Positions 7,922-32,352 of a stretch of DNA of 32,352 bases are shown here, piece after piece; the first letter of the stretch is position 1, and every line of letters starts with the position of its first letter. The notes under the pieces are model-generated. The model ran no database searches. It was not told the DNA's origin and was given only the letters and a program-made list of their open reading frames with translations. The translations under genes and the position numbers were made by a program. Source of the DNA: a virus; the IMG/VR virus record IMGVR_UViG_3300028392_001411, positions 1 through 32,352 of that record. One strand, 5' to 3'.

Positions 7922-10900
7922 ATGCCAATTAGAGCCGAACTGAATACATTACCAGTAATTCCCGGGGCCACGCCCTCTTCTGCTCAATTTATCATAAAAA
8001 ATGACGGTATAGAGGGATTATTACCAACCAATATAGCAAAACAATTACTTGGAGTTGCAGGATATACTGGTAGTATAGGTCTACAGGGTGTTCAAGGAAG
8101 TCAAGGTACACAAGGAATTCAGGGTGTGCAAGGTACTCAGGGTGCTCAGGGCTACCAAGGAGTACAGGGAGCTGGTGTTCAAGGTATACAGGGTGCCCAG
8201 GGTGCTCAGGGTACACAGGCAAGTCAAGGTGCTCAAGGAGCCAATGGTGTCCAAGGCTCACAAGGTGTACAGGGCGCTAGAGGAGCTCAGGGACTTCAGG
8301 GTGTACAAGGCGTTAAGGGTAGTCAGGGTGTACAAGGACCCGCTGCGGCAGCGGCTGCATCGGCTAATACAGCAACTAATCTTGCAGGTGGCGTAGCAGG
8401 AAGTATTCCTATTCAAAATGGCACAAGTTCAACTACTTTTATTACTACAGGTAGTAATGGAAGCATTCTTCAATATTCTGGATCAACTGCTACCTGGGTA
8501 TCTACTTCCACATTATTAGTTGGAAAAGCTGAACAAGTAGGTATTACCAATGCTACAAGTTCGTTAGGAAATTGGTATCTTACCATGGCTAGTGGTACTT
8601 CTAACTACTATCCATTAAATAATTCCGGTGATTTAGCCTATAGCACTACTAATAAAAAATTATCAGTACCTAGTGTAAATATTACCACATCAACTGCGGC
8701 AGTATCCACTCTTACCGGAGCATTGATTGTAGCAGGCGGTGCTGGTATTAGCGGTGATTTATATGTTGGTGGTCAGATTGTTGCAGAGAAATTGGTAATT
8801 CAATATACAACCATAACTACAACATTGGTTAAAACTGATGATGTAATTCAAACATATAATACAACAAATGCAACATCCACTTTAAGTGGTGCAATGGTTG
8901 TAGCAGGTGGATTAGGCGTTGGTAGAGACATTTATTTTGGTGGAAATTTATATCAAAATGGTGTGTTATTTACAGGTAGCGGTGGAGCTCAAGGTATACA
9001 AGGTGTACAGGGCGCCAGAGGTACACAAGGTAATCAGGGTGTGCAAGGAACACAGGGAGTTCAAGGCTCACAAGGTGTACAAGGTGTACAAGGCAATCAA
9101 GGTGTACAAGGTAGAGACGGAACAGCAGTTTACCAAGGTGCTCAAGGTGTACAGGGAACACAGGGGGCTCAAGGAGCTCAAGGTTCTGGAAGTCAAGGTG
9201 TCATTGGGGCACAGGGTATTCAAGGATCACTAGGTGTCCAAGGTGCTCAAGGTGTACAGGGAACTGCTGGCATTGATGCACAAGGTGTAATGGGATCTCA
9301 AGGTCTTCAAGGTAGTCAAGGACGTCAAGGCGTTCAAGGTAGTCAAGGTGTTAAAGGTTCTGATGCAACTGCTCAAGGTGTACAAGGTGTACAAGGTTCT
9401 TCAGGAGCGCAAGGTAATCAAGGTGTACAAGGTGTTAAAGGTTCTGATGCAACTGCTCAAGGTGTACAAGGTGTACAAGGTTCTTCAGGAGCGCAAGGTA
9501 ATCAAGGTGTTCAGGGAGCCAATGGCAGACCTGGATTAGATTCAACAGCTCAAGGTGTACAGGGCATACAAGGATCATTTGGTACTCAGGGTAATCAAGG
9601 TGTTCAGGGAGCCAATGGCAGAGCTGGATTAGATTCAACAGCTCAAGGTGTACAGGGCATACAAGGATCATTTGGTACTCAGGGTAATCAAGGTGTTCAG
9701 GGATCCACTGGCAGAGCTGGATTAGATTCGACAGCACAAGGTGTACAGGGTCTACAAGGTACAAATGGTGCTCAAGGCTACCAAGGAACACAAGGTGCTC
9801 AAGGTAGTCAAGGTAGAGCCGGATTAGATTCATCAGCACAAGGGTTGCAAGGTGTTCAGGGTCATGTTGGTAGTCAAGGTGTACAGGGATCCGGTAGTCA
9901 AGGACCTCAAGGTATACAAGGACCGCAAGGTGCTCAAGGCTACCAAGGTGTACAAGGAGGTGGTACTCAAGGTTATCAGGGAACTCAAGGTACCCAAGGT
10001 TATCAAGGTGTACAAGGACCTCCTGGTAGTGGGTCCGGGTCTGTTGCTGGATCACAGCAGGTTATATATAATAATGCAGGAGCATTAACAACCGATGATA
10101 ATTTAAGATGGGCATTAAACGGTAATTCTGGAGCACAAAGAACATTATATCTCGGTGGTGGTGCTGGAACTTATGGTACAGGTGTATTTGCTAAAACACA
10201 TAACTTTGCTACAAATAGTTCAATCTCTGATGCAACTGCTACTGGAACGAGATTAGACTTTACCGTAAATTCGGCAGCAAGTATGGTTCTAACTTCAACC
10301 GGTCTTGGCATTGGTGTAGGCGCAGGTAGTCCAAATTACAAACTAGTGGTTAAAACAGCAGCCGACGGTGATACCGCTGCATTATTCTATAAAGAATTTA
10401 GTGGGGCTGAGTCAAGTAATAGCAGCAATCTTCTAATATCTCCATCAGTAACCGCTGGACTATATTCCGGAATTACTCAGGCTAGAGATGCGGCCATTGT
10501 ATATTCTACCTCAACAACTTATGGTGGATTATTCATTGGTCCTAACAATGTACAAAATCAAGGTTTACGATTAGATAAAAATGGTGAGGTGTATGTAACA
10601 GGGTCAATTACAGCAGGTACTACGCTGACAGCAGCCGGTGGTGGTATTACATTAAAGAATTTCAATACCAGCACCGTCTCAGAAAGTGGTTTAATAAGAT
10701 TTGGAACCGGACTCACTCACTACTTTCTCTATAGTGCTGAAACTCCTGCATTGTTTGGTGCTGTTGGTTATTATTTGTCCAACGCTGATATGTATTTCGG
10801 ACAGGGTGGAACTTATAATCTAAGTGTTACCGGAGATGTTATTGCATATTCTGCATCTGACCAAAGATTAAAGACTAACATCAAACCTATTACCAATGCG

Positions 10901-11152
10901 GTTGATAAAATTAATAAATTAGACGGCATTACATATAATTGGAATGAGTTGGCTAGAGATAGAGATACCACTCTAACAGAAGCAGGGTTGCTGGCTCAAC
11001 AAGTTGAAGCAGTATTACCCGAAGTAGTAACTACTAGAGAAGATGGATATATGGCTGTTAAATATGAAAGAATTGTTCCATTATTAGTCGAGGCTATTAA
11101 AGAACTTTCTGCAGAGGTTAAAGAACTCAAGAAACAATTGTCTAAAATTTAA
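7922..11152 (+). CDS. Collagen-like tail fibre with C-terminal S74 self-cleaving chaperone (1076 aa)
   Basis: A large virion fibre. Residues 1-46 are a probable attachment segment. Residues 47-142 and 352-706 are collagen-type triplets, mostly Gly-X-Gln (GVQGSQGTQG), expected to form a triple helix. Residues 160-350 hold beta-structured repeats (TGALIVAGGAGISGDLYVGG and a second similar copy). Residues 707-970 are a beta-rich shaft or tip. From about 977 comes a peptidase S74 intramolecular chaperone: SASDQRLKTNIKPI, with Ser979 and Lys984 spaced as in the endosialidase catalytic pair. This domain trimerises the fibre and cuts itself off; the C-terminal coiled coil (VEAIKELSAEVKELKKQL) belongs to the released part. 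It is likely a receptor-binding or long fibre protein. Near-perfect DNA repeats inside the collagen block could let its length vary. Confidence 0.93.
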   Translation: MPIRAELNTLPVIPGATPSSAQFIIKNDGIEGLLPTNIAKQLLGVAGYTGSIGLQGVQGSQGTQGIQGVQGTQGAQGYQGVQGAGVQGIQGAQGAQGTQASQGAQGANGVQGSQGVQGARGAQGLQGVQGVKGSQGVQGPAAAAAASANTATNLAGGVAGSIPIQNGTSSTTFITTGSNGSILQYSGSTATWVSTSTLLVGKAEQVGITNATSSLGNWYLTMASGTSNYYPLNNSGDLAYSTTNKKLSVPSVNITTSTAAVSTLTGALIVAGGAGISGDLYVGGQIVAEKLVIQYTTITTTLVKTDDVIQTYNTTNATSTLSGAMVVAGGLGVGRDIYFGGNLYQNGVLFTGSGGAQGIQGVQGARGTQGNQGVQGTQGVQGSQGVQGVQGNQGVQGRDGTAVYQGAQGVQGTQGAQGAQGSGSQGVIGAQGIQGSLGVQGAQGVQGTAGIDAQGVMGSQGLQGSQGRQGVQGSQGVKGSDATAQGVQGVQGSSGAQGNQGVQGVKGSDATAQGVQGVQGSSGAQGNQGVQGANGRPGLDSTAQGVQGIQGSFGTQGNQGVQGANGRAGLDSTAQGVQGIQGSFGTQGNQGVQGSTGRAGLDSTAQGVQGLQGTNGAQGYQGTQGAQGSQGRAGLDSSAQGLQGVQGHVGSQGVQGSGSQGPQGIQGPQGAQGYQGVQGGGTQGYQGTQGTQGYQGVQGPPGSGSGSVAGSQQVIYNNAGALTTDDNLRWALNGNSGAQRTLYLGGGAGTYGTGVFAKTHNFATNSSISDATATGTRLDFTVNSAASMVLTSTGLGIGVGAGSPNYKLVVKTAADGDTAALFYKEFSGAESSNSSNLLISPSVTAGLYSGITQARDAAIVYSTSTTYGGLFIGPNNVQNQGLRLDKNGEVYVTGSITAGTTLTAAGGGITLKNFNTSTVSESGLIRFGTGLTHYFLYSAETPALFGAVGYYLSNADMYFGQGGTYNLSVTGDVIAYSASDQRLKTNIKPITNAVDKINKLDGITYNWNELARDRDTTLTEAGLLAQQVEAVLPEVVTTREDGYMAVKYERIVPLLVEAIKELSAEVKELKKQLSKI
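9347..9514 (+). repeat. Two tandem 84-bp repeats within the collagen-like region
   Basis: Two adjacent copies, nearly identical at DNA level, of a 28-codon unit (it includes KGSDATAQGVQGVQGSSGAQ). Identity at synonymous positions points to recent duplication or ongoing gene conversion. Confidence 0.75.
9522..9800 (+). repeat. Tandem 93-bp repeats (two close copies plus a diverged third)
   Basis: A 31-codon unit (NGRPGLDSTAQGVQGIQGSF and onward) repeats at about 9522 and 9615 with few base changes, then as a more diverged copy from about 9708. Each unit has one D-S break between Gly-X-Gln triplets. The array continues the 84-bp repeats and could expand or contract by recombination. Confidence 0.7.
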
Positions 11153-23481: not shown

Positions 23482-23985
23482 ATGTTGACACTTGTAAAAT
23501 TTCCTGACCCGATACTTAGGCAACGTATGCCTGAATTTGACTTTGCTAATCCTGTAATGGATCCAATTGAACTTGAAAAGGCAATGTTAGAAATAATGTT
23601 TGCTGCGGATGGCATTGGACTTGCCGCTAATCAAGTGGGCATAAATGCCCGTGTGTTTGTTATGGGACACAGAGTAAATCCAGAGGCTGCTCAAGCATTC
23701 TTTAATCCTGTTATTATTGGCAATACAGAAGAAATTGCTGATATGGAAGAAGGTTGCTTGAGTTTTCCAAGAATATATGTTAATATTAAACGACCTAAAG
23801 CAATTAAGGCTCGTTGGCAGAATAGTCAAGGAGAATTTGAAGAAGGTGAGTTTGATGGTTATAACTGTAAGTGCTTCTTACATGAATATGACCATCTTGA
23901 GGGAATTACATTCCAAGATCGAGTCAGCAGCCTTAAATGGGCTATGGCAGTTAAGAAAACTAAAGTAAAGAGAAAGTACAAATAA
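23482..23985 (+). CDS. def: Peptide deformylase (167 aa)
   Basis: Removes the formyl group from new proteins' N-terminal Met. All three motifs are intact: GIGLAANQVG (44-53), EGCLSFP with metal ligand Cys92, and H134-E135-Y-D-H138. It is a full-size deformylase (about 167 residues; E. coli 168). Phage deformylases are usually shorter and lack the C-terminal helix, but here a Lys-rich tail (SSLKWAMAVKKTKVKRKYK) is kept. TAATG coupling to the clpA-like gene suggests joint expression. Confidence 0.95.
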   Translation: MLTLVKFPDPILRQRMPEFDFANPVMDPIELEKAMLEIMFAADGIGLAANQVGINARVFVMGHRVNPEAAQAFFNPVIIGNTEEIADMEEGCLSFPRIYVNIKRPKAIKARWQNSQGEFEEGEFDGYNCKCFLHEYDHLEGITFQDRVSSLKWAMAVKKTKVKRKYK

Positions 23986-26261
23986 TGCTACAACCAAACA
24001 AAGACCTAGAAGACATTTTCAATTCAGCCGTTGGATTTGCCAACGAACATCGTCATGAATATGTTACTCTGGAACACTTCTTGTACGGTATGATTAAAAA
24101 TGAACCATTTGCTAAACTATTAACTAACTTTGGTACAGATGTTAATTCAATGGTTAAGGATTTAGAAAAATATATAACCATAGATCTTAATGAGATTGTC
24201 ACTAACGACCTTGATCGCCCTAAGAAAACTGCCACTGTTGATCGTATGCTACATCGTGCATATCAAACAGCATTGTTTTCAGGTAGACTACTTATTGAAC
24301 CAGTAGACTGCTTTGTTAGTATGTTTGCTGAAAAGAAAAGTCACGCATTTTACTTTGTACGCAAGGCAAATATTGACAAAGATAAGTTTCTAAGCTACGT
24401 ACAGAAAGAGTTTGATAAAGAAGAACAGGAAGAAGAAGTTGAGAAACCTGTAAATCCACAAATTGAACGTATGCTCAATCAGTATTGCGTTAATCTATCT
24501 GCTCGTGCTAAATCTAAAAAGATCGATCCTGTTATTGGACGCGAAACAGAGATTGAAGAAGTTCAATTAGTATTGGCACGTAGGAATAAAGCTAACGTAA
24601 TGCTCATTGGTGATCCAGGTGTAGGTAAGACTGCTATTGCAGAAGGACTAGCACGTAAGATCGTCGAAGGTAGTGTTCCTAAGTTTATCCAAGATAATAC
24701 TGTTTATAGTCTAGACATTAGTGCTATGCTAGCAGGTAGTAAGTATCGTGGAGACTTTGAAGAACGTTTAAAGATGGTATTGGGTGCTCTAGAAAAGAAA
24801 AAGAATTGTATCTTGTTCATTGATGAGGCACACATGATGAGTGGTGCTGGTGCTAACAGTGGTAGCAGCAATGATATGGCAAATATGCTTAAACCTGCAT
24901 TGAGCAAAGGTACTATTAAAGTTGTAGCCAGCACAACCTGGGAAGAATATCGCAAACATTTTGAGAAAGATCGTGCATTGATGCGTCGATTCCAACGTGT
25001 TACTATAGATGAGCCTAGTGAAGCAACTACTATTAAGATTCTTAAAGGTCTACGCAAGTATTACGAAAAACATCATAATGTTAAAATCACTAACCAAGCA
25101 CTTACAGACGCAGTAACATATTCTGTCAAGTATATGAGTGATAAGAAATTGCCAGATAAGGCCATTGATCTTATTGATTGTGCCAGTGCTCGCTTTAAAC
25201 TCAAAGATGAAGAAAACGGCGTAGTGGATCACGACGAGATTATATTCGAAGTAGCAAAGATTGCCAATCTTCCACTAGATCAAATTAGTGCTAAAGAAGG
25301 TTCTAACCTTGCAGGACTTGAAAAAAGTATGCGTGGTAAAGTGTTTGGGCAAGAGAAAGCAATTGAAACACTACTGGATAAGATCTTTATTGCACAAGCA
25401 GGACTAAAAGCATTCAATAAACCAGTAGGTAGCTTCTTGTTTGTTGGTCCAACTGGTGTAGGTAAGACAGAAGTTGCTAAACAACTTGCTGGCAATATGG
25501 GTATTAAACTGGTTAGATTTGATATGAGCGAATATCAAGAGAAACACAGTGTGGCTAAGTTCATCGGTGCTCCTCCTGGATACGTGGGATTTGAAGATAA
25601 TGCTGGTCAGCTAATTACTAATCTACAAGAACACCCTAACTGTGTTTTATTGTTGGACGAAGTTGAAAAAGCTCATCCAGATGTGCTTACTGTTATGCTA
25701 CAATTAATGGATAATGGCTTTATTACTGGCAGCAATGGTAAGAAAGCAGATGGACGTAATGCTATTATCATTATGACCAGTAACTTAGGTGCTGCCGATG
25801 CTGAAAAGAATGGTGTTGGATTTGGTAGTTTAGAGCGTGATGGTGATCCTAAGGATGCTGTTAACAAATTCTTTGCACCTGAATTCCGTAATCGTTTAGA
25901 TGGTATTATTAAGTTTGGTAAGTTAGATCACACAAGTATGACCAAAGTTGTTAAGAAGTTTGTTGACGAACTTAACGCATTGATCAAAGACAAGAATGTA
26001 CACGTTAAACCCAACGCAGATACTATTGAGTATTTGATTAAGAAAGGGTTTGATAGTAAAATGGGTGCTCGTCCTCTACAACGTACTATTGATGAATACA
26101 TTAAGAAGCCATTAAGCAAGGAAATCTTGTTTGGTAAGCTGGTTAATGGTGGCGTTGTTGAAGTATCTGTAGAAGATGACAAACTTAAAATCAACATCAT
26201 TGAAGTATTACCTGTAGTTAAGGTAGAAAAAAATGCAGATACAGAAGCTACCATCCAGTAA
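23985..26261 (+). CDS. clpA: ClpA-like double AAA+ unfoldase (758 aa)
   Basis: The same length as E. coli ClpA (758). It has an N domain (1-145; PNKDLEDIFNSAVGFANEHR), D1 with Walker A GDPGVGKT (209-216) and Walker B LFIDEA (276-281), and D2 with Walker A GPTGVGKT (488-495) and Asp558-Glu559. The C-terminal D2-small domain contains SKMGARPLQRTIDEYI. No ClpB/ClpC middle coiled coil is visible. Val611-Gly-Phe613, in the position of E. coli IGL617-619, is the ClpP-docking tripeptide, so this unfoldase should feed a ClpP such as the one at 964. The pore loop appears as KYRGDFEER in D1 and GYVGFED in D2. Likely targets: host regulators, or phage proteins for turnover. Confidence 0.95.
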   Translation: MLQPNKDLEDIFNSAVGFANEHRHEYVTLEHFLYGMIKNEPFAKLLTNFGTDVNSMVKDLEKYITIDLNEIVTNDLDRPKKTATVDRMLHRAYQTALFSGRLLIEPVDCFVSMFAEKKSHAFYFVRKANIDKDKFLSYVQKEFDKEEQEEEVEKPVNPQIERMLNQYCVNLSARAKSKKIDPVIGRETEIEEVQLVLARRNKANVMLIGDPGVGKTAIAEGLARKIVEGSVPKFIQDNTVYSLDISAMLAGSKYRGDFEERLKMVLGALEKKKNCILFIDEAHMMSGAGANSGSSNDMANMLKPALSKGTIKVVASTTWEEYRKHFEKDRALMRRFQRVTIDEPSEATTIKILKGLRKYYEKHHNVKITNQALTDAVTYSVKYMSDKKLPDKAIDLIDCASARFKLKDEENGVVDHDEIIFEVAKIANLPLDQISAKEGSNLAGLEKSMRGKVFGQEKAIETLLDKIFIAQAGLKAFNKPVGSFLFVGPTGVGKTEVAKQLAGNMGIKLVRFDMSEYQEKHSVAKFIGAPPGYVGFEDNAGQLITNLQEHPNCVLLLDEVEKAHPDVLTVMLQLMDNGFITGSNGKKADGRNAIIIMTSNLGAADAEKNGVGFGSLERDGDPKDAVNKFFAPEFRNRLDGIIKFGKLDHTSMTKVVKKFVDELNALIKDKNVHVKPNADTIEYLIKKGFDSKMGARPLQRTIDEYIKKPLSKEILFGKLVNGGVVEVSVEDDKLKINIIEVLPVVKVEKNADTEATIQ

Positions 26262-28244: not shown

Positions 28245-28604
28245 ATGAAACTCACAGAATTCTTTAATCAGCCTATACAAATAAGCAAACGTGGACAAGA
28301 TACCGACGAAGATAAACGTGCCGACGAACTTTTTTGGTATATCATTGATCACGATAAACTACACAAAGACTACTTCCATCCCATTGCTCGTAAGGTAAAG
28401 AGTTTAGATGAATGCACGCCTGAGCAAGTATTAAAAATGTATATGCCCATGGTCATAAAAGGTTGTAAAGAATACTATCACGATAATGAATTAAAAGGCA
28501 AGTTAGGTAAAGAGTTTCCCGAAGAAATGAGACACGATATGTGCCATAGACTACACGATCACTATCGTGAAGATATTAAAAAAGACAAATATAAGTTAGG
28601 ATAA
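28245..28604 (+). CDS. Conserved phage protein with MKLTEFF leader (119 aa)
   Basis: A 119-residue helical protein: MKLTEFFNQPIQISKRGQDT, then DEDKRADELFWYIIDHDKLH and MRHDMCHRLHDHYREDIKKD, with many His/Asp. I recognise this pattern from T4-like aquatic phages, function unknown. Its first ten residues match the opening of the next, giant protein in the pattern xxL(S/T)E(L/F)Fxx(P), which resembles T4 capsid-targeting leaders, so both may go into the prohead. That is inference. It ends 4 bases before the next start. Confidence 0.72.
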   Translation: MKLTEFFNQPIQISKRGQDTDEDKRADELFWYIIDHDKLHKDYFHPIARKVKSLDECTPEQVLKMYMPMVIKGCKEYYHDNELKGKLGKEFPEEMRHDMCHRLHDHYREDIKKDKYKLG

Positions 28605-28608
28605 CGCT

Positions 28609-31600
28609 GTGAACTTATCTGAACTATTTAGAAATCCTAAATTAGCATTATCCGAAGGTGGCAATGTATCTAGCCAAAGTCCAGGCTGGCAAGGGGTACC
28701 AGGTGATCATCAAGCACAAGAATTAGATCTACATGTTCATGACCGTAGTTATGTACAAGATGTAGTAAGTCAAACGCTACATTCAATTAATAATGCGTTT
28801 ACTCAGCAATTTAAAGAACCGCTATGGCATGAAAATTCTGTAGAGACTCAAAAGTTTCTAAGCGGCAGTACTTTACAATTTATGGATAAGAAAATACCCG
28901 ATGAAGAATTTGTCCGAGTCAAACCCAAAGTTGGTGATATTGATACACAAGCAACTGACAAACATGCTGAAACAATTAGACAATTCTTACAAAATAACAC
29001 AGGTAAAATGTTTGGCAATGCTATGTTGTTGGGATTTACTCCAGGTAATAGTCAATGGGTTAGCCTATGGGAGATCAAATTAAAAGATTTACCTGTTAAA
29101 ATTCAAATTGACTTTGAATACGGAGCACATGAAGCTGAAACGGGATTACCCACAGAGTGGCAATCATATAGTCATAGCAGTTCGTGGGATGACATATCTC
29201 AAAACATTAAAGGTGTATTCCACAAATTTTTAGATCGTGCATTACCCTATTCTCAGGCCAGTACCAAATATGTTGCTCGTGTATTAAAGAAAAGTACAAA
29301 GATATCTGATACACCTATAACTGATAGTGATTATAGTTTTGCTGTTAGCGGTCCAAGCGGTGGTGGTGTAAGTCAGAAATATGTTCCTTACATGGATCCT
29401 GCTACTGGGCAACCTATGGAAAAGGATGGCATTCCTGTAATGCAATTACTCGAACCCAGTGCAAGACAATACATACAAAATCTTGGTCAACAATTTGAAA
29501 TCTTCTTTGGTAGAAAACCCAAAGGCAATGATCAAGAACTTAAAAATAGTTTTGTCGGTACAGTACAACTGATTGCCAAATATCTTGACGAACAAAAGAA
29601 AGAAGAAATAGCACAACGTTTCTTTAGTATATGTTTTGAACCAGGTAGTCAAATGATCACCAAAAATGATCCGGCAAGAGACCGCGATATTAAATTTGCT
29701 GCCATAGATTGGATGTTGGAAAATATGAAGTTAGCCAATGCTGCTAGTTTAAGAAAACAAGCAATTGAAATGGCTACTACTTATGCTGCTGCATTTCAAA
29801 ACAAGGCTGTTAAACCATTAAAAGAAGAAGCACAGGTCAAAGCACAATTCCGAAAAGGTATGCCACACTTACACGATCTTAAGCCTGCTGATTTGTTAGA
29901 TTTATTAGACGAAATTCACGACGGAAACGGCAATTTTAAACTACAAAACATTCCTTTAAACGTCAAAGTAGACGGGTTCGGTGGCAGATTTGGTAAGAAT
30001 TCTGAAGGTAAGCCTTTCATGGGCACCAGTAGAACAGAACCCAGATATACTCCAGGCTTTGTAGCATATCATCAAAAGAAAGGTACTACTGATCCAGAAG
30101 TATTAGGTCGTGCTCAACTATTTGATGAACTATTTGAAGAAATGATGAATGCTGTCAAGTTAGTTGATAGCAAGTTAGGTCCTGGATTCTTAGTTAACAA
30201 ACAAGTTACCTGTGAAGTATTGTATCTACCATTTGCCACAGAAACTCCAGAAGGTAAATTAAAATTTGTAGGCATACACTACGACAAATTACCAGCAGGC
30301 GTTAAACTTGCATTGGTTCCATTCCGTATCACAGATGCTACCACAGGTGATGATTTACCTAACTCAAACAAAATTGTTCAAGAGCTAACCAGCGTAGGAC
30401 AATCAGGCAGTGTTATGTTTATTGATAATAGCCTAACACAGAATGAAGCATTAGATGTTACCGCATTAGTTCCACCTGTTGAGAACATTGATGAACTAAA
30501 AGCCATGTTAGCCAGCAACAAGTTAGAAGCCCGACGTCAGGTTAAGGCAGCATTGGAACCTGTGGCCGCAGCATTAGAGAAAGCAATTATCAATGACCCT
30601 AACATCATTGGCAAAGATATGTTGGGCAAAGACTACGAAGGTATTGTTATCAATAGTCGCCTAGGTCCTATTAAAGTTACCAGTCAAGAACAACGTGATG
30701 TTATCACTGCTAAGAATGCTGCTAAGGTAAATGCAAGAACAGAACGTCCAAGAGGAGATGCTAAGACAGCGGTAGTTGCTATTGGTAGTTTTGTTGGACA
30801 TATTGGTCATGAGCAATTATTTGATTACACATTAAAGAAAGCCGCAGCAGTAGGTGGGGATCCATATTTGTTTATTGGCAATGCACAGGGTAAAGATGAT
30901 CCAATACCACCGGCAGTTAAAGTACAAACTTGGCACAAACTATATCCAGAATATGCTAAGAATATTAGTACCGTGAATGAAGCAGGTGGATCATTACTAC
31001 AAAAGATCAAGCACGAATTAATTAATCCACTACCAGGCAAGCCGCCGCGCTATGATAATGTTATTATTATGGTTGGTGAAGATCAAGCAGGTCTTACTAT
31101 GCCACAGGCATTAATGAAGGGTGTTAATAAATTTTCAGGCTATGAACATGTTAAAGTAAGTTTAGAAATAACACCACGTGGTACTGGTATGAGTTTTACT
31201 AAACTACGAAATATATTAAAAGATCCTAACGCCACTGAACAACAGCAATTAGCCGTTTGGAGCCAAGGATTTGATGTACAAAAATTAGGTGTTAATTGGA
31301 TTAAACACCTAATGGATTTAACAAGGGAAGGTATGGGAATACAACAACCAAAGGCACCTGTGCCACAACCAGAACCTGCTCCTATAGCAGAACAAAGAAT
31401 ATTAAATGCCCTAGTAGAAGGTACCGGTATTGACAGCACACTACGATCCATTATCAACGACATCGGAGAACCTATTACCAATGTCTATGAAACAATGAAA
31501 TTCCAGGCTAAGAAGTATATGGAGAATCATGGCGAACTAGGTCGTGGCTTTAGAATGGTAGCAGCAGGGGTTGGTGGCCGTTGGGTGCAAAATATGTACA

Positions 31601-32352
31601 TAGGTAGACTACACAATGAACTACACGACCTATGCAAATACAATACTCGTAGAACCGTAGATTTACGTGACTTCTTACGTGGAGAAGAAGCAGACGGCGA
31701 ATTAGAAATGAAGAGATCATTTGGCAACATCTCTAATAATCTACCTCCAATATTGGCCAAGTTAGGCGAACAAATCAATGCTCCACAACTGACAAGAAAT
31801 GCTCGTCGTTGGATGCAGAATAAAGCAGAATACGAAAGATACTTAATGGATCTTGAAGCAGACAGTGATGAGCAGGATGAGCCAGCTATTAAGCCACCTA
31901 AAAGTACAGCAGTAGGACAACAGAATGCACAGGTTGATCAGATTGTTAATGATGTATTAAGTAAGATTCCAAAGAACGTTGCCGGGGAGATCCGTAATGC
32001 TATTGCTCGTGCTCCAAACAAATTAGCAGCATTGAAACAAGAGTTGGATAGACATCACGTTAAAATGGCCGAAGGTGTGGCGGAAGGCTCCGAGAACAAT
32101 AACCCAATAGCAAATAAAATATTCTTTGCTCGTAGTAATAAAGCACCCAAAGAATGGAGTTATGACCATGTTGGATTTATAACTCAAGATGGAAAACAAA
32201 TTCAAATGAGTGGGCATAAAGGCAATGACGTATATGTCACTACCGATGTGACTGATGATCCGGAGTTTCCTAAACAAAATATCAAAATTGTATCATTATC
32301 AAAACCAGTATCGGTGCCTACAACCAACTCAGTAGGAGCAGAAAATTGTGGA
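28609..32352 (+). CDS. Giant multidomain protein with three nucleotidyl-transfer domains, probable packaged head polyprotein (at least 1248 aa, cut by window end)
   Basis: Open from GTG 28609 to the window end without a stop. Residues 1-16 (start, then NLSELFRNPKLALSE) look like a capsid-targeting leader ending at a prohead-protease site. About 30-230: pol-beta-like nucleotidyltransferase, G86-S87, D110-I-D112 (KVGDIDTQ), D168 (IQIDFEYG). About 430-700: covalent ligase-like domain, K453-V-D-G (motif I), E536 (CEVLYLP), E677-G-I-V (motif IV), K689 (IKV, motif V). About 718-900: HIGH-type nucleotidyltransferase, H731-I-G-H734 and S862-F-T-K-L-R. After LVE937 comes a helical region. From about 1165: YDHVGFITQDGKQIQMSG ... 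AENCG, like a permuted NlpC/P60 (LRAT/YaeF) domain. Further VE/AE-G strings at 928, 937, 1155 and 1159 could be cleavage sites. Function unknown; RNA/DNA end repair or tagging after injection is one idea. Confidence 0.85.
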   Translation, partial: MNLSELFRNPKLALSEGGNVSSQSPGWQGVPGDHQAQELDLHVHDRSYVQDVVSQTLHSINNAFTQQFKEPLWHENSVETQKFLSGSTLQFMDKKIPDEEFVRVKPKVGDIDTQATDKHAETIRQFLQNNTGKMFGNAMLLGFTPGNSQWVSLWEIKLKDLPVKIQIDFEYGAHEAETGLPTEWQSYSHSSSWDDISQNIKGVFHKFLDRALPYSQASTKYVARVLKKSTKISDTPITDSDYSFAVSGPSGGGVSQKYVPYMDPATGQPMEKDGIPVMQLLEPSARQYIQNLGQQFEIFFGRKPKGNDQELKNSFVGTVQLIAKYLDEQKKEEIAQRFFSICFEPGSQMITKNDPARDRDIKFAAIDWMLENMKLANAASLRKQAIEMATTYAAAFQNKAVKPLKEEAQVKAQFRKGMPHLHDLKPADLLDLLDEIHDGNGNFKLQNIPLNVKVDGFGGRFGKNSEGKPFMGTSRTEPRYTPGFVAYHQKKGTTDPEVLGRAQLFDELFEEMMNAVKLVDSKLGPGFLVNKQVTCEVLYLPFATETPEGKLKFVGIHYDKLPAGVKLALVPFRITDATTGDDLPNSNKIVQELTSVGQSGSVMFIDNSLTQNEALDVTALVPPVENIDELKAMLASNKLEARRQVKAALEPVAAALEKAIINDPNIIGKDMLGKDYEGIVINSRLGPIKVTSQEQRDVITAKNAAKVNARTERPRGDAKTAVVAIGSFVGHIGHEQLFDYTLKKAAAVGGDPYLFIGNAQGKDDPIPPAVKVQTWHKLYPEYAKNISTVNEAGGSLLQKIKHELINPLPGKPPRYDNVIIMVGEDQAGLTMPQALMKGVNKFSGYEHVKVSLEITPRGTGMSFTKLRNILKDPNATEQQQLAVWSQGFDVQKLGVNWIKHLMDLTREGMGIQQPKAPVPQPEPAPIAEQRILNALVEGTGIDSTLRSIINDIGEPITNVYETMKFQAKKYMENHGELGRGFRMVAAGVGGRWVQNMYIGRLHNELHDLCKYNTRRTVDLRDFLRGEEADGELEMKRSFGNISNNLPPILAKLGEQINAPQLTRNARRWMQNKAEYERYLMDLEADSDEQDEPAIKPPKSTAVGQQNAQVDQIVNDVLSKIPKNVAGEIRNAIARAPNKLAALKQELDRHHVKMAEGVAEGSENNNPIANKIFFARSNKAPKEWSYDHVGFITQDGKQIQMSGHKGNDVYVTTDVTDDPEFPKQNIKIVSLSKPVSVPTTNSVGAENCG

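What the first reader, a model, noticed from the sequence alone, without database searches (positions are those of the whole stretch)
28609..32352. One protein joins three unrelated nucleotidyl-transfer domains
Seen: an uninterrupted frame of at least 1248 codons contains, in order, GS(86-87)...DID(110-112)...D168 (pol-beta-like), KVDG(453-456)...E536...EGIV(677-680)...K689 (covalent ligase/capping type) and HIGH(731-734)...SFTKLR(862-867) (HIGH cytidylyl/adenylyltransferase). Each set has the right order and roughly the right spacing for its superfamily. Known: these folds carry out nucleotide addition, end joining or adenylylation, and NMN/CTP-type activation respectively. I do not know of a described protein with all three. 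Inference: a one-polypeptide nucleic-acid or cofactor repair and tagging machine.
Basis: partly seen in the sequence, partly recalled or inferred. Interest (0 to 1): 0.9.

Follow-up and report, generated by a model that had tools for sequence, protein, structure and literature searches.

The report
Protease-cut phage enzyme polyprotein
A T4-like phage gene makes one giant protein that carries three real nucleotide-transferring enzymes, but sequence signals suggest that the phage's capsid-maturation protease cuts it apart inside the virus head so that the enzymes can be injected into the next host cell along with the DNA.

Summary
The frame 28609-32352 is open and runs off the window. All the named motif residues are exact, and nearly all are invariant in 42-50 diverse relatives. 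AlphaFold models give a Pol-beta fold, an ATP-dependent ligase-like fold and a HIGH (PPAT/NadD-like) fold. The 'one machine' reading needs changing. In relatives, the N-terminal leader ends [LIV]-x-E|GGN, the T4 gp21 prohead-protease rule (L/I-x-E|). A second such site lies between the Pol-beta and ligase domains (45 of 46 relatives, 10 expected by shuffling). None lies between ligase and HIGH (0 of 46). Homology between related proteins stops exactly at a later predicted cut. The 221-kb contig with the 89%-identical copy carries gp21 and a T4-type capsid gene block. Where the parts are separate genes (Vibrio, Campylobacter, Stenotrophomonas, Xanthomonas phages), gene boundaries match the predicted cut products, and three of these groups start the Pol-beta protein at M-GGN, the predicted mature end. 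Best reading: a capsid-targeted polyprotein, cut by the prohead protease into a Pol-beta enzyme, a ligase-HIGH enzyme and swappable modules, packaged and injected. Repair of broken nucleic acid, probably tRNA, is the likeliest job, but inferred. No virion mass spectrometry or assay was available.

The parts
28609..28656 (+). Residues 1-16: leader ending L-S-E, predicted capsid-targeting propeptide; predicted cut after Glu16
   Evidence: E at P1 in 45/45 and L/I/V at P3 in 45/45 nonredundant relatives, P2 free (12 residue types)
28657..29826 (+). Residues 17-406: Pol-beta-superfamily nucleotidyltransferase (GS 86-87, D110, D112, D168)
   Evidence: invariant motif residues; AF2 pLDDT 94; VIA Z 8.6 to pol mu
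29818..29829 (+). Residues 404-407, L-K-E|E: predicted second cut between NTase and ligase (LNE|A in many relatives)
   Evidence: 45/46 relatives have a site in this linker against 10.0 expected; P1' Glu here is atypical
29827..30759 (+). Residues 407-717: ATP-dependent ligase / covalent nucleotidyltransferase domain (K453, E536, EG 677-678, K689)
   Evidence: invariant residues; Foldseek archaeal RNA ligase prob 1.00; standalone homologue L139 8124-9011, hhalign E 2e-46
30760..31341 (+). Residues 718-911: HIGH-superfamily nucleotidyltransferase (H731, H734, SFTKLR 862-867)
   Evidence: phrog_3041 'cytidyltransferase' E 1e-11; VIA Z 13.4 to PPAT, about 12 to NadD/NadM
31384..31422 (+). Residues 926-938: candidate cuts PIAE|Q and LVE|G after the HIGH domain
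   Evidence: sequence; a site in the 70 aa after HIGH in 41/46 against 17.8 expected
31420..32073 (+). Residues 938-1155: accessory module of unknown function, also found behind a HIGH domain alone in L025 and L026
32065..32085 (+). Residues 1153-1159, MAE|GVAE|G: predicted cut and module-swap point
   Evidence: blastp homology of the 100%-identical copy L002 to L006 and L003 ends at L002 residue 1158, the P1 Glu (window residue 1155)
32086..32352 (+). Residues 1160-1248: start of the next, unassigned module; frame open at window end
28245..28604 (+). Upstream 119-aa gene, relative of a region that in L071/L072 is fused to the NTase through ...KYKLME|GGN
   Evidence: similarity seen by eye between the related gene in L006's contig, G002 69882-70241, and L071/L072; window copy ends DKYKLG, stop

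Best explanation
The gene encodes a capsid-targeted polyprotein of a T4-like phage. The short N-terminal leader directs it into the prohead core. The phage's gp21-type prohead protease then cuts after [L/I/V]-x-E, first behind the leader (leaving an N-terminal Gly-Gly-Asn on the Pol-beta enzyme), then between Pol-beta and ligase, then behind the HIGH domain, and again between further swappable modules. The products are a free Pol-beta nucleotidyltransferase and a two-domain ligase-HIGH enzyme. They are packaged with the DNA, enter the next host with it, and act in the first minutes of infection. The most likely task is mending host or phage RNA ends, such as tRNAs cut by host defence: Pol-beta restores lost nucleotides and the ligase seals through K453-AMP. 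The HIGH domain makes an activated nucleotide or cofactor (NMNAT/PPAT-like) used with the ligase. Shown: domains, motif conservation, site statistics, gp21 in a close relative, co-occurrence and separate-gene versions. Inferred: cutting, packaging, injection, substrates.
For: (1) Leader site P1=E 45/45, P3=L/I/V 45/45, variable leader length and P2; NTase-ligase linker site 45/46 against 10 expected; ligase-HIGH linker 0/46, which serves as a negative control. (2) gp21 rule L/I-x-E and short CTS propeptides in T4 (PMC9026906). (3) gp21 (PF03420) and gp23 (PF07068) in G002 and G006, the contigs behind L006 and L019; CTS-like N-termini 9 against 2.0 expected in G002, including core/capsid proteins encoded next to gp21. 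(4) L002 homology to L006 and L003 stops exactly at a P1 Glu. (5) In L008, L062, L071, L072, L112 and L120 another region precedes the NTase and the [LI]-x-E|GGN junction is kept. (6) Separate-gene versions match the products: 21 of 21 Vibrio/Campylobacter phage records have an NTase gene and a ligase-HIGH fusion gene; X1 and Stenotrophomonas phages have three separate genes. NTases of Va1, X1 and YB07 begin M-GGN; CP220 and L139 keep leaders ...ILE|GGN and ...LNE|GGN; the L139 ligase gene has its own leader MGFEKYLQE|AE. (7) A HIGH 'cytidylyltransferase' was found in cyanophage S-CREM2 virions by MS (PMC10665884). (8) Precedent for Pol-beta with RNA ligase in phage tRNA repair, RlaP (PMC7824862).
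Against: No mass spectrometry or cleavage assay of this protein. The window's own second site is LKE|E, with an unusual P1' Glu. gp21 was sought only in relatives' contigs; the window itself is a 32-kb fragment. Vibrio, Stenotrophomonas and Xanthomonas versions have no leader, so packaging is not universal. RNA rather than DNA or a small molecule as substrate is not tested. Pfam gave no RlaP match. hhalign did not link this ligase-HIGH to the Vibrio/Campylobacter one; that parallel rests on domain content and order.
Confidence: 0.7

Rival explanations
1. A stable multifunctional enzyme: the three domains stay together and work as one repair machine; the [LIV]xE stretches are ordinary linkers.
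For: 75 of 80 related loci keep the three domains in one frame; fusion often signals joint action; co-occurrence when separate.
Against: Sites conserved only where units separate, none between ligase and HIGH; homology stops exactly at a site; separate genes split at the same points; more modules follow the same kind of sites.
Confidence: 0.15
2. The polyprotein is packaged and cut as proposed, but the enzymes serve NAD+ or other cofactor replenishment or small-molecule tagging, not nucleic-acid repair.
For: HIGH part is PPAT/NadD-like; NMNAT-like proteins reported in cyanophage virions with a proposed NAD+ role (PMC10665884); the Va1 HIGH domain hits phrog_3462 NMN adenylyltransferase.
Against: Does not explain the constant partnership with a Pol-beta enzyme and a ligase-type enzyme with complete motifs K453/E536/EG/K689.
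Confidence: 0.3
3. A polyvalent protein in the sense of Iyer et al. 2017, injected as such and processed by a built-in peptidase.
For: Multi-domain, mosaic, phage-borne; Pol-beta NTases are among polyvalent domains (PMC5512222).
Against: No peptidase family found by Pfam in the tail regions of ten relatives; cut sites follow the gp21 rule; [quoted passage not shown]
Confidence: 0.12
4. A DNA rather than RNA end-joining set that protects or circularises the injected genome.
For: Foldseek also finds ASFV and human DNA ligase 1 for the ligase part; the NTase is closest to DNA polymerases mu, lambda and beta; a protein with possible nuclease-like residues lies between NTase and ligase in X1 and YB07 (by eye).
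Against: The best ligase match by rank is an RNA ligase; T4-like genomes have terminal redundancy and their own DNA ligase (background knowledge).
Confidence: 0.25

Closest known systems
T4 internal/ejection proteins IPI-III and Alt (capsid targeting sequence plus gp21 cleavage)
   Same: Short N-terminal leader ending L/I-x-E, gp21-type protease and T4 capsid genes in relatives; predicted injection at infection
   Different: T4 proteins lose propeptides at the ends; here several folded enzymes in one chain appear to be separated from each other
Polyvalent proteins (Iyer et al. 2017, PMC5512222)
   Same: Giant mosaic multi-domain phage proteins thought to be delivered with the DNA
   Different: Domain set not among those described in the passages read; separation appears to depend on the capsid protease instead of a built-in peptidase
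RlaP Pol-beta NTase with phage RNA ligases (RNA repair, PMC7824862)
   Same: Pol-beta nucleotidyltransferase that keeps company with an ATP-dependent ligase
   Different: No Pfam match to a known NTase family; additional HIGH domain; predicted packaging in the capsid
Phage cytidyltransferase families phrog_3041 / phrog_395 / phrog_455 and DUF6267
   Same: HIGH enzyme beside or fused to a KxDG protein in cyanophages
   Different: DUF6267 shows no detectable homology to this ligase domain by hhalign

Membership tests
Pol-beta nucleotidyltransferase superfamily | hG[GS] ... Dh[DE] ... h[DE]h catalytic motif | tested here: met
   G86 S87, D110 x D112, D168 invariant in 50 sequences
Pol-beta nucleotidyltransferase superfamily | Pol-beta fold | tested here: met
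   AF2 pLDDT 94; VIA Z 8.6, rmsd 3.7 over 177 aa to pol mu, top rows almost all family X polymerases; Foldseek E only about 0.01
ATP-dependent ligase / capping superfamily | Motifs I KxDG, III E, IV EGhV, V K in order | tested here: met
   K453, E536, E677 G678, K689 invariant in 42 sequences
ATP-dependent ligase / capping superfamily | Ligase fold | tested here: met
   Foldseek 5d1o archaeal RNA ligase prob 1.00, E 2.4e-3; the VIA list was filled by the HIGH part, so it gives no second test
ATP-dependent ligase / capping superfamily | Lysyl-AMP formation and joining of RNA or DNA ends | not testable with these tools
   needs purified protein
HIGH nucleotidyltransferase superfamily | HxGH and ISxTxxR-type motifs, Rossmann-type fold | tested here: met
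   H731 G733 H734 invariant, S/T/LR conserved; Z 13.4 to PPAT; FAD_syn profile in 37 of 42 members
T4-type capsid-targeted, gp21-processed protein | N-terminal propeptide ending L/I-x-E | tested here: met
   45/45 relatives, with V at P3 in 4; window LSE|G at residue 16
T4-type capsid-targeted, gp21-processed protein | gp21-type prohead protease in the same phage | tested here: inconclusive
   present in G002 (221 kb, 89% identical gene) and G006; the window is only a 32-kb fragment
T4-type capsid-targeted, gp21-processed protein | Cut form present in mature virions and injected | not testable with these tools
   needs virion mass spectrometry
RlaP (RNA ligase-associated Pol-beta) | Match to the family profile | tested here: inconclusive
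   no RlaP-named family among Pfam matches of 50 members; presence of such a model in the library was not confirmed
Polyvalent protein | 2-15 domains in one polypeptide of a phage or plasmid, delivered with DNA | tested here: inconclusive
   multi-domain and mosaic; delivery not testable
Polyvalent protein | Built-in (metallo)peptidase that releases domains, common in the class | tested here: inconclusive
   no peptidase family found by Pfam in ten tail regions; several tail modules remain unassigned

The most novel reading that the evidence does not exclude
A large group of freshwater T4-like phages uses its capsid-maturation protease as the processing enzyme of modular effector polyproteins. 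Enzyme modules are swapped between phages exactly at gp21 cut sites, and the cut set, always including a Pol-beta enzyme and a ligase-HIGH enzyme, is injected as an early counter-defence kit with a ligase-HIGH chemistry not yet described.
Probability: 0.5. Interest if true: 0.87.

Novelty: new variant of a known kind. Interest (0 to 1): 0.73.

Why it matters
Head proteases of tailed phages are known for trimming head proteins. If they also split enzyme polyproteins, that is a virus-protease logic familiar from RNA viruses but not found for tailed phages in the papers searched here, and [LIV]xE|G sites become a way to find injected effectors and their true ends in metagenomes. The constant trio Pol-beta / ligase / HIGH, all unannotated or vaguely annotated in cultured phages of Vibrio, Campylobacter, Stenotrophomonas and Xanthomonas, marks a conserved enzyme pathway that can be tested in culture now.

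Tried and rejected
Single-sequence searches were weak: Pfam gave only FAD_syn at E 0.06 and PDB phmmer nothing; profiles and models were needed. Rejected: chance motif matches (invariance in 42-50 relatives); that the three-domain fusion is unique (75 of 80 related loci have it); that gp21-like sites are enriched everywhere in the genome ([LIV]xE[AG] is not enriched overall in G002: 122 against 113 shuffled; only their placement is informative). hhalign of this ligase-HIGH against the Vibrio/Campylobacter ligase-HIGH, DUF6267 and the YB07 HIGH protein was not significant. No Pfam domain with confidence in the C-terminal modules. A scan of one genome per species found a single relative, in an Anaerolineae MAG contig, probably a phage. 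Papers: no report of a gp21-cut enzyme polyprotein found, but the library holds open-access papers only. Supplementary Table S2 of PMC3322345 (Campylobacter phage IBB_35 virion MS) could not be read. Attempts with wrong coordinates failed and were repeated.
Full report
THE OBSERVATION. The window is a 32-kb virus record. The frame 28609-32352 is open for 1248 codons and leaves the window. A contig carrying a 100% identical copy (L002) continues it to about 1590 residues and is itself cut off. In 50 sequences (relatives 38-79% identical) the Pol-beta residues G86, S87, D110, D112, D168 (and E170) are invariant. In 42 sequences the ligase residues K453, D455, G456, E536, E677, G678, K689 and the HIGH residues H731, G733, H734 and R867 are invariant.

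FOLDS. AlphaFold2 on residues 17-401 gives pLDDT 94. Foldseek is weak (best E 0.011, alarmone synthetases and Pol-beta members), but VIA-align places family X polymerases on top (pol mu, Z 8.6, rmsd 3.7 over 177 aa). For residues 411-910, pLDDT is 88 and pTM 0.65. The HIGH half matches PPAT (Z 13.4) and NadD/NadM (about 12), and the ligase half matches an archaeal ATP-dependent RNA ligase (Foldseek E 2.4e-3, prob 1.00), ASFV ligase and human ligase 1. So all three named folds are supported. I could not inspect the pockets atom by atom.

WHAT SURROUNDS IT. Complete relatives are about 900-1780 aa and mosaic. Of 80 viral loci with the NTase, 75 have NTase, ligase and HIGH in one frame. Before the NTase there is a leader of varying length that ends in [LIV]-x-E followed by G-[GS]-N. 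In 45 nonredundant cases P1 is Glu 45 times, P3 is Leu 31, Ile 10, Val 4, and P2 takes 12 different residues. This is the published rule of the T4 prohead protease gp21, L/I-X-E (PMC9026906), and the leader length fits the T4 capsid targeting sequences (PMC9026906). In six loci another region stands before the NTase and the same junction is kept.

SITES AND UNITS. The linker between NTase and ligase has a [LIVM]xE site in 45 of 46 relatives (10.0 expected from shuffling; strict form 38 against 4.7). The linker between ligase and HIGH has none in 46. The 70 residues after HIGH have one in 41 of 46 (17.8 expected). Further down, QGVAE|G repeats separate modules that differ between phages; GVAE occurs 20 times in the polyproteins against 0.3 expected. 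The 100%-identical copy L002 and L006 are 89% identical up to L002 residue 1158, the Glu of MAE|G, and share nothing detectable beyond it; the alignment with L003 ends at the same residue. In the window's own second site the residue after the cut is Glu (LKE|E), which is a weakness.

THE PROTEASE. A gp21-type protease (PF03420) and gp23 are present in the 221-kb and 166-kb contigs that carry relatives L006 and L019, and gp21 also in Xanthomonas phage X1. In the 221-kb contig, nine ORFs have CTS-like N-termini against 2.0 expected; these include core/capsid genes beside gp21 and the polyprotein.

SEPARATE-GENE VERSIONS. This is the strongest comparative evidence. Among 50,697 phage records, the NTase is found in 15 Campylobacter and 6 Vibrio records and X1. 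A search with the Vibrio ligase-HIGH protein likewise finds 15 Campylobacter and 6 Vibrio records (IBB_35 is split over two records, so its two genes lie on different contigs); in CP220 the two genes lie some 60 kb apart. X1 and the Stenotrophomonas phages (NTase in 16 records; gene order read in YB07) have NTase, an intervening protein, ligase and HIGH as neighbouring genes; the YB07 NTase and ligase are homologous by hhalign (E 3e-17 and 4e-12). The NTases of Va1, X1 and YB07 start M-G-G-N, exactly the predicted mature end of the freshwater proteins. CP220 keeps a leader ILE|GGN. A contig from an Anaerolineae MAG (L139) has a separate NTase gene with leader FLNE|GGN and a separate ligase gene with its own leader MGFEKYLQE|AE (ligase homology E 2e-46). 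The gene 28245-28604 just upstream of the window ORF ends DKYKLG; in L071/L072 the like sequence runs on as KYKLME|GGN into the NTase. Gene boundaries and predicted cuts therefore coincide repeatedly.

VIRION EVIDENCE FROM ELSEWHERE. A HIGH 'cytidylyltransferase' was detected by MS in virions of the T4-like cyanophage S-CREM2, and NMNAT-like proteins in three other cyanophage virions (PMC10665884; its authors caution about co-purification). This supports, but does not prove, packaging here.

FUNCTION. Pol-beta enzymes that accompany phage RNA ligases (RlaP) are thought to restore nucleotides before ligation of tRNAs broken by host defence (PMC7824862). The constant partnership of NTase and ligase here fits that. 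The HIGH domain is the open point: PPAT/NMNAT-like by fold, kept with the ligase, fused or adjacent, also in cyanophages beside the KxDG protein DUF6267, though DUF6267 is not detectably homologous to this ligase. NAD+/cofactor supply or nucleotide activation for the ligase step are both possible. My estimate is 0.8 for capsid targeting and cutting, 0.65 for injection, and 0.4 for an RNA-repair task.

VERDICT. The three-domain observation is right. The single machine is better read as a protease-cut, capsid-packaged polyprotein. This is a new variant of the T4 internal-protein theme, and it is testable in cultured phages.

Noticed in passing
L006 12018-13766; L017 10246-12840; L024 2440-5034: A second family of mosaic ORFs (start MNNEF..., leader YVLES or YTLES) a few genes downstream carries up to 7 GVAE sites and may be another cut polyprotein.
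   Followed up: partly
L140 3103-3939; L030 6999-8003: The gene between NTase and ligase in Stenotrophomonas YB07 and Xanthomonas X1 shows D...xVxxK-type residues reminiscent of PD-(D/E)XK nucleases (by eye only).
   Followed up: no
L005 after residue 950; L023 270-470: A module starting DVGGNYLYHATGG...KILSTGRIFPAHGP follows the HIGH domain (in L023 before the 938-1155 module); it looks like a possible ADP-ribosyltransferase-type domain, not tested.
   Followed up: no
L132 3727-5513 (Synechococcus phage S-H9-1): DUF6267 has a KWDG ... EGYV ... K ligase-like motif set and its gene overlaps a HIGH cytidyltransferase gene; the DUF6267 protein is matched in 372 phage records and has no known function.
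   Followed up: partly
window 23985-26261: Clp-type ATP-dependent protease/ATPase (phrog_4871, E 3e-251).
   Followed up: no
window 7922-11152: Long tail fibre-like protein with matches to collagen-like tail families.
   Followed up: no
L134 1579-3013: In Campylobacter phage IBB_35 the ligase-HIGH gene is annotated as two CDS, possibly a frameshift or sequencing error.
   Followed up: no
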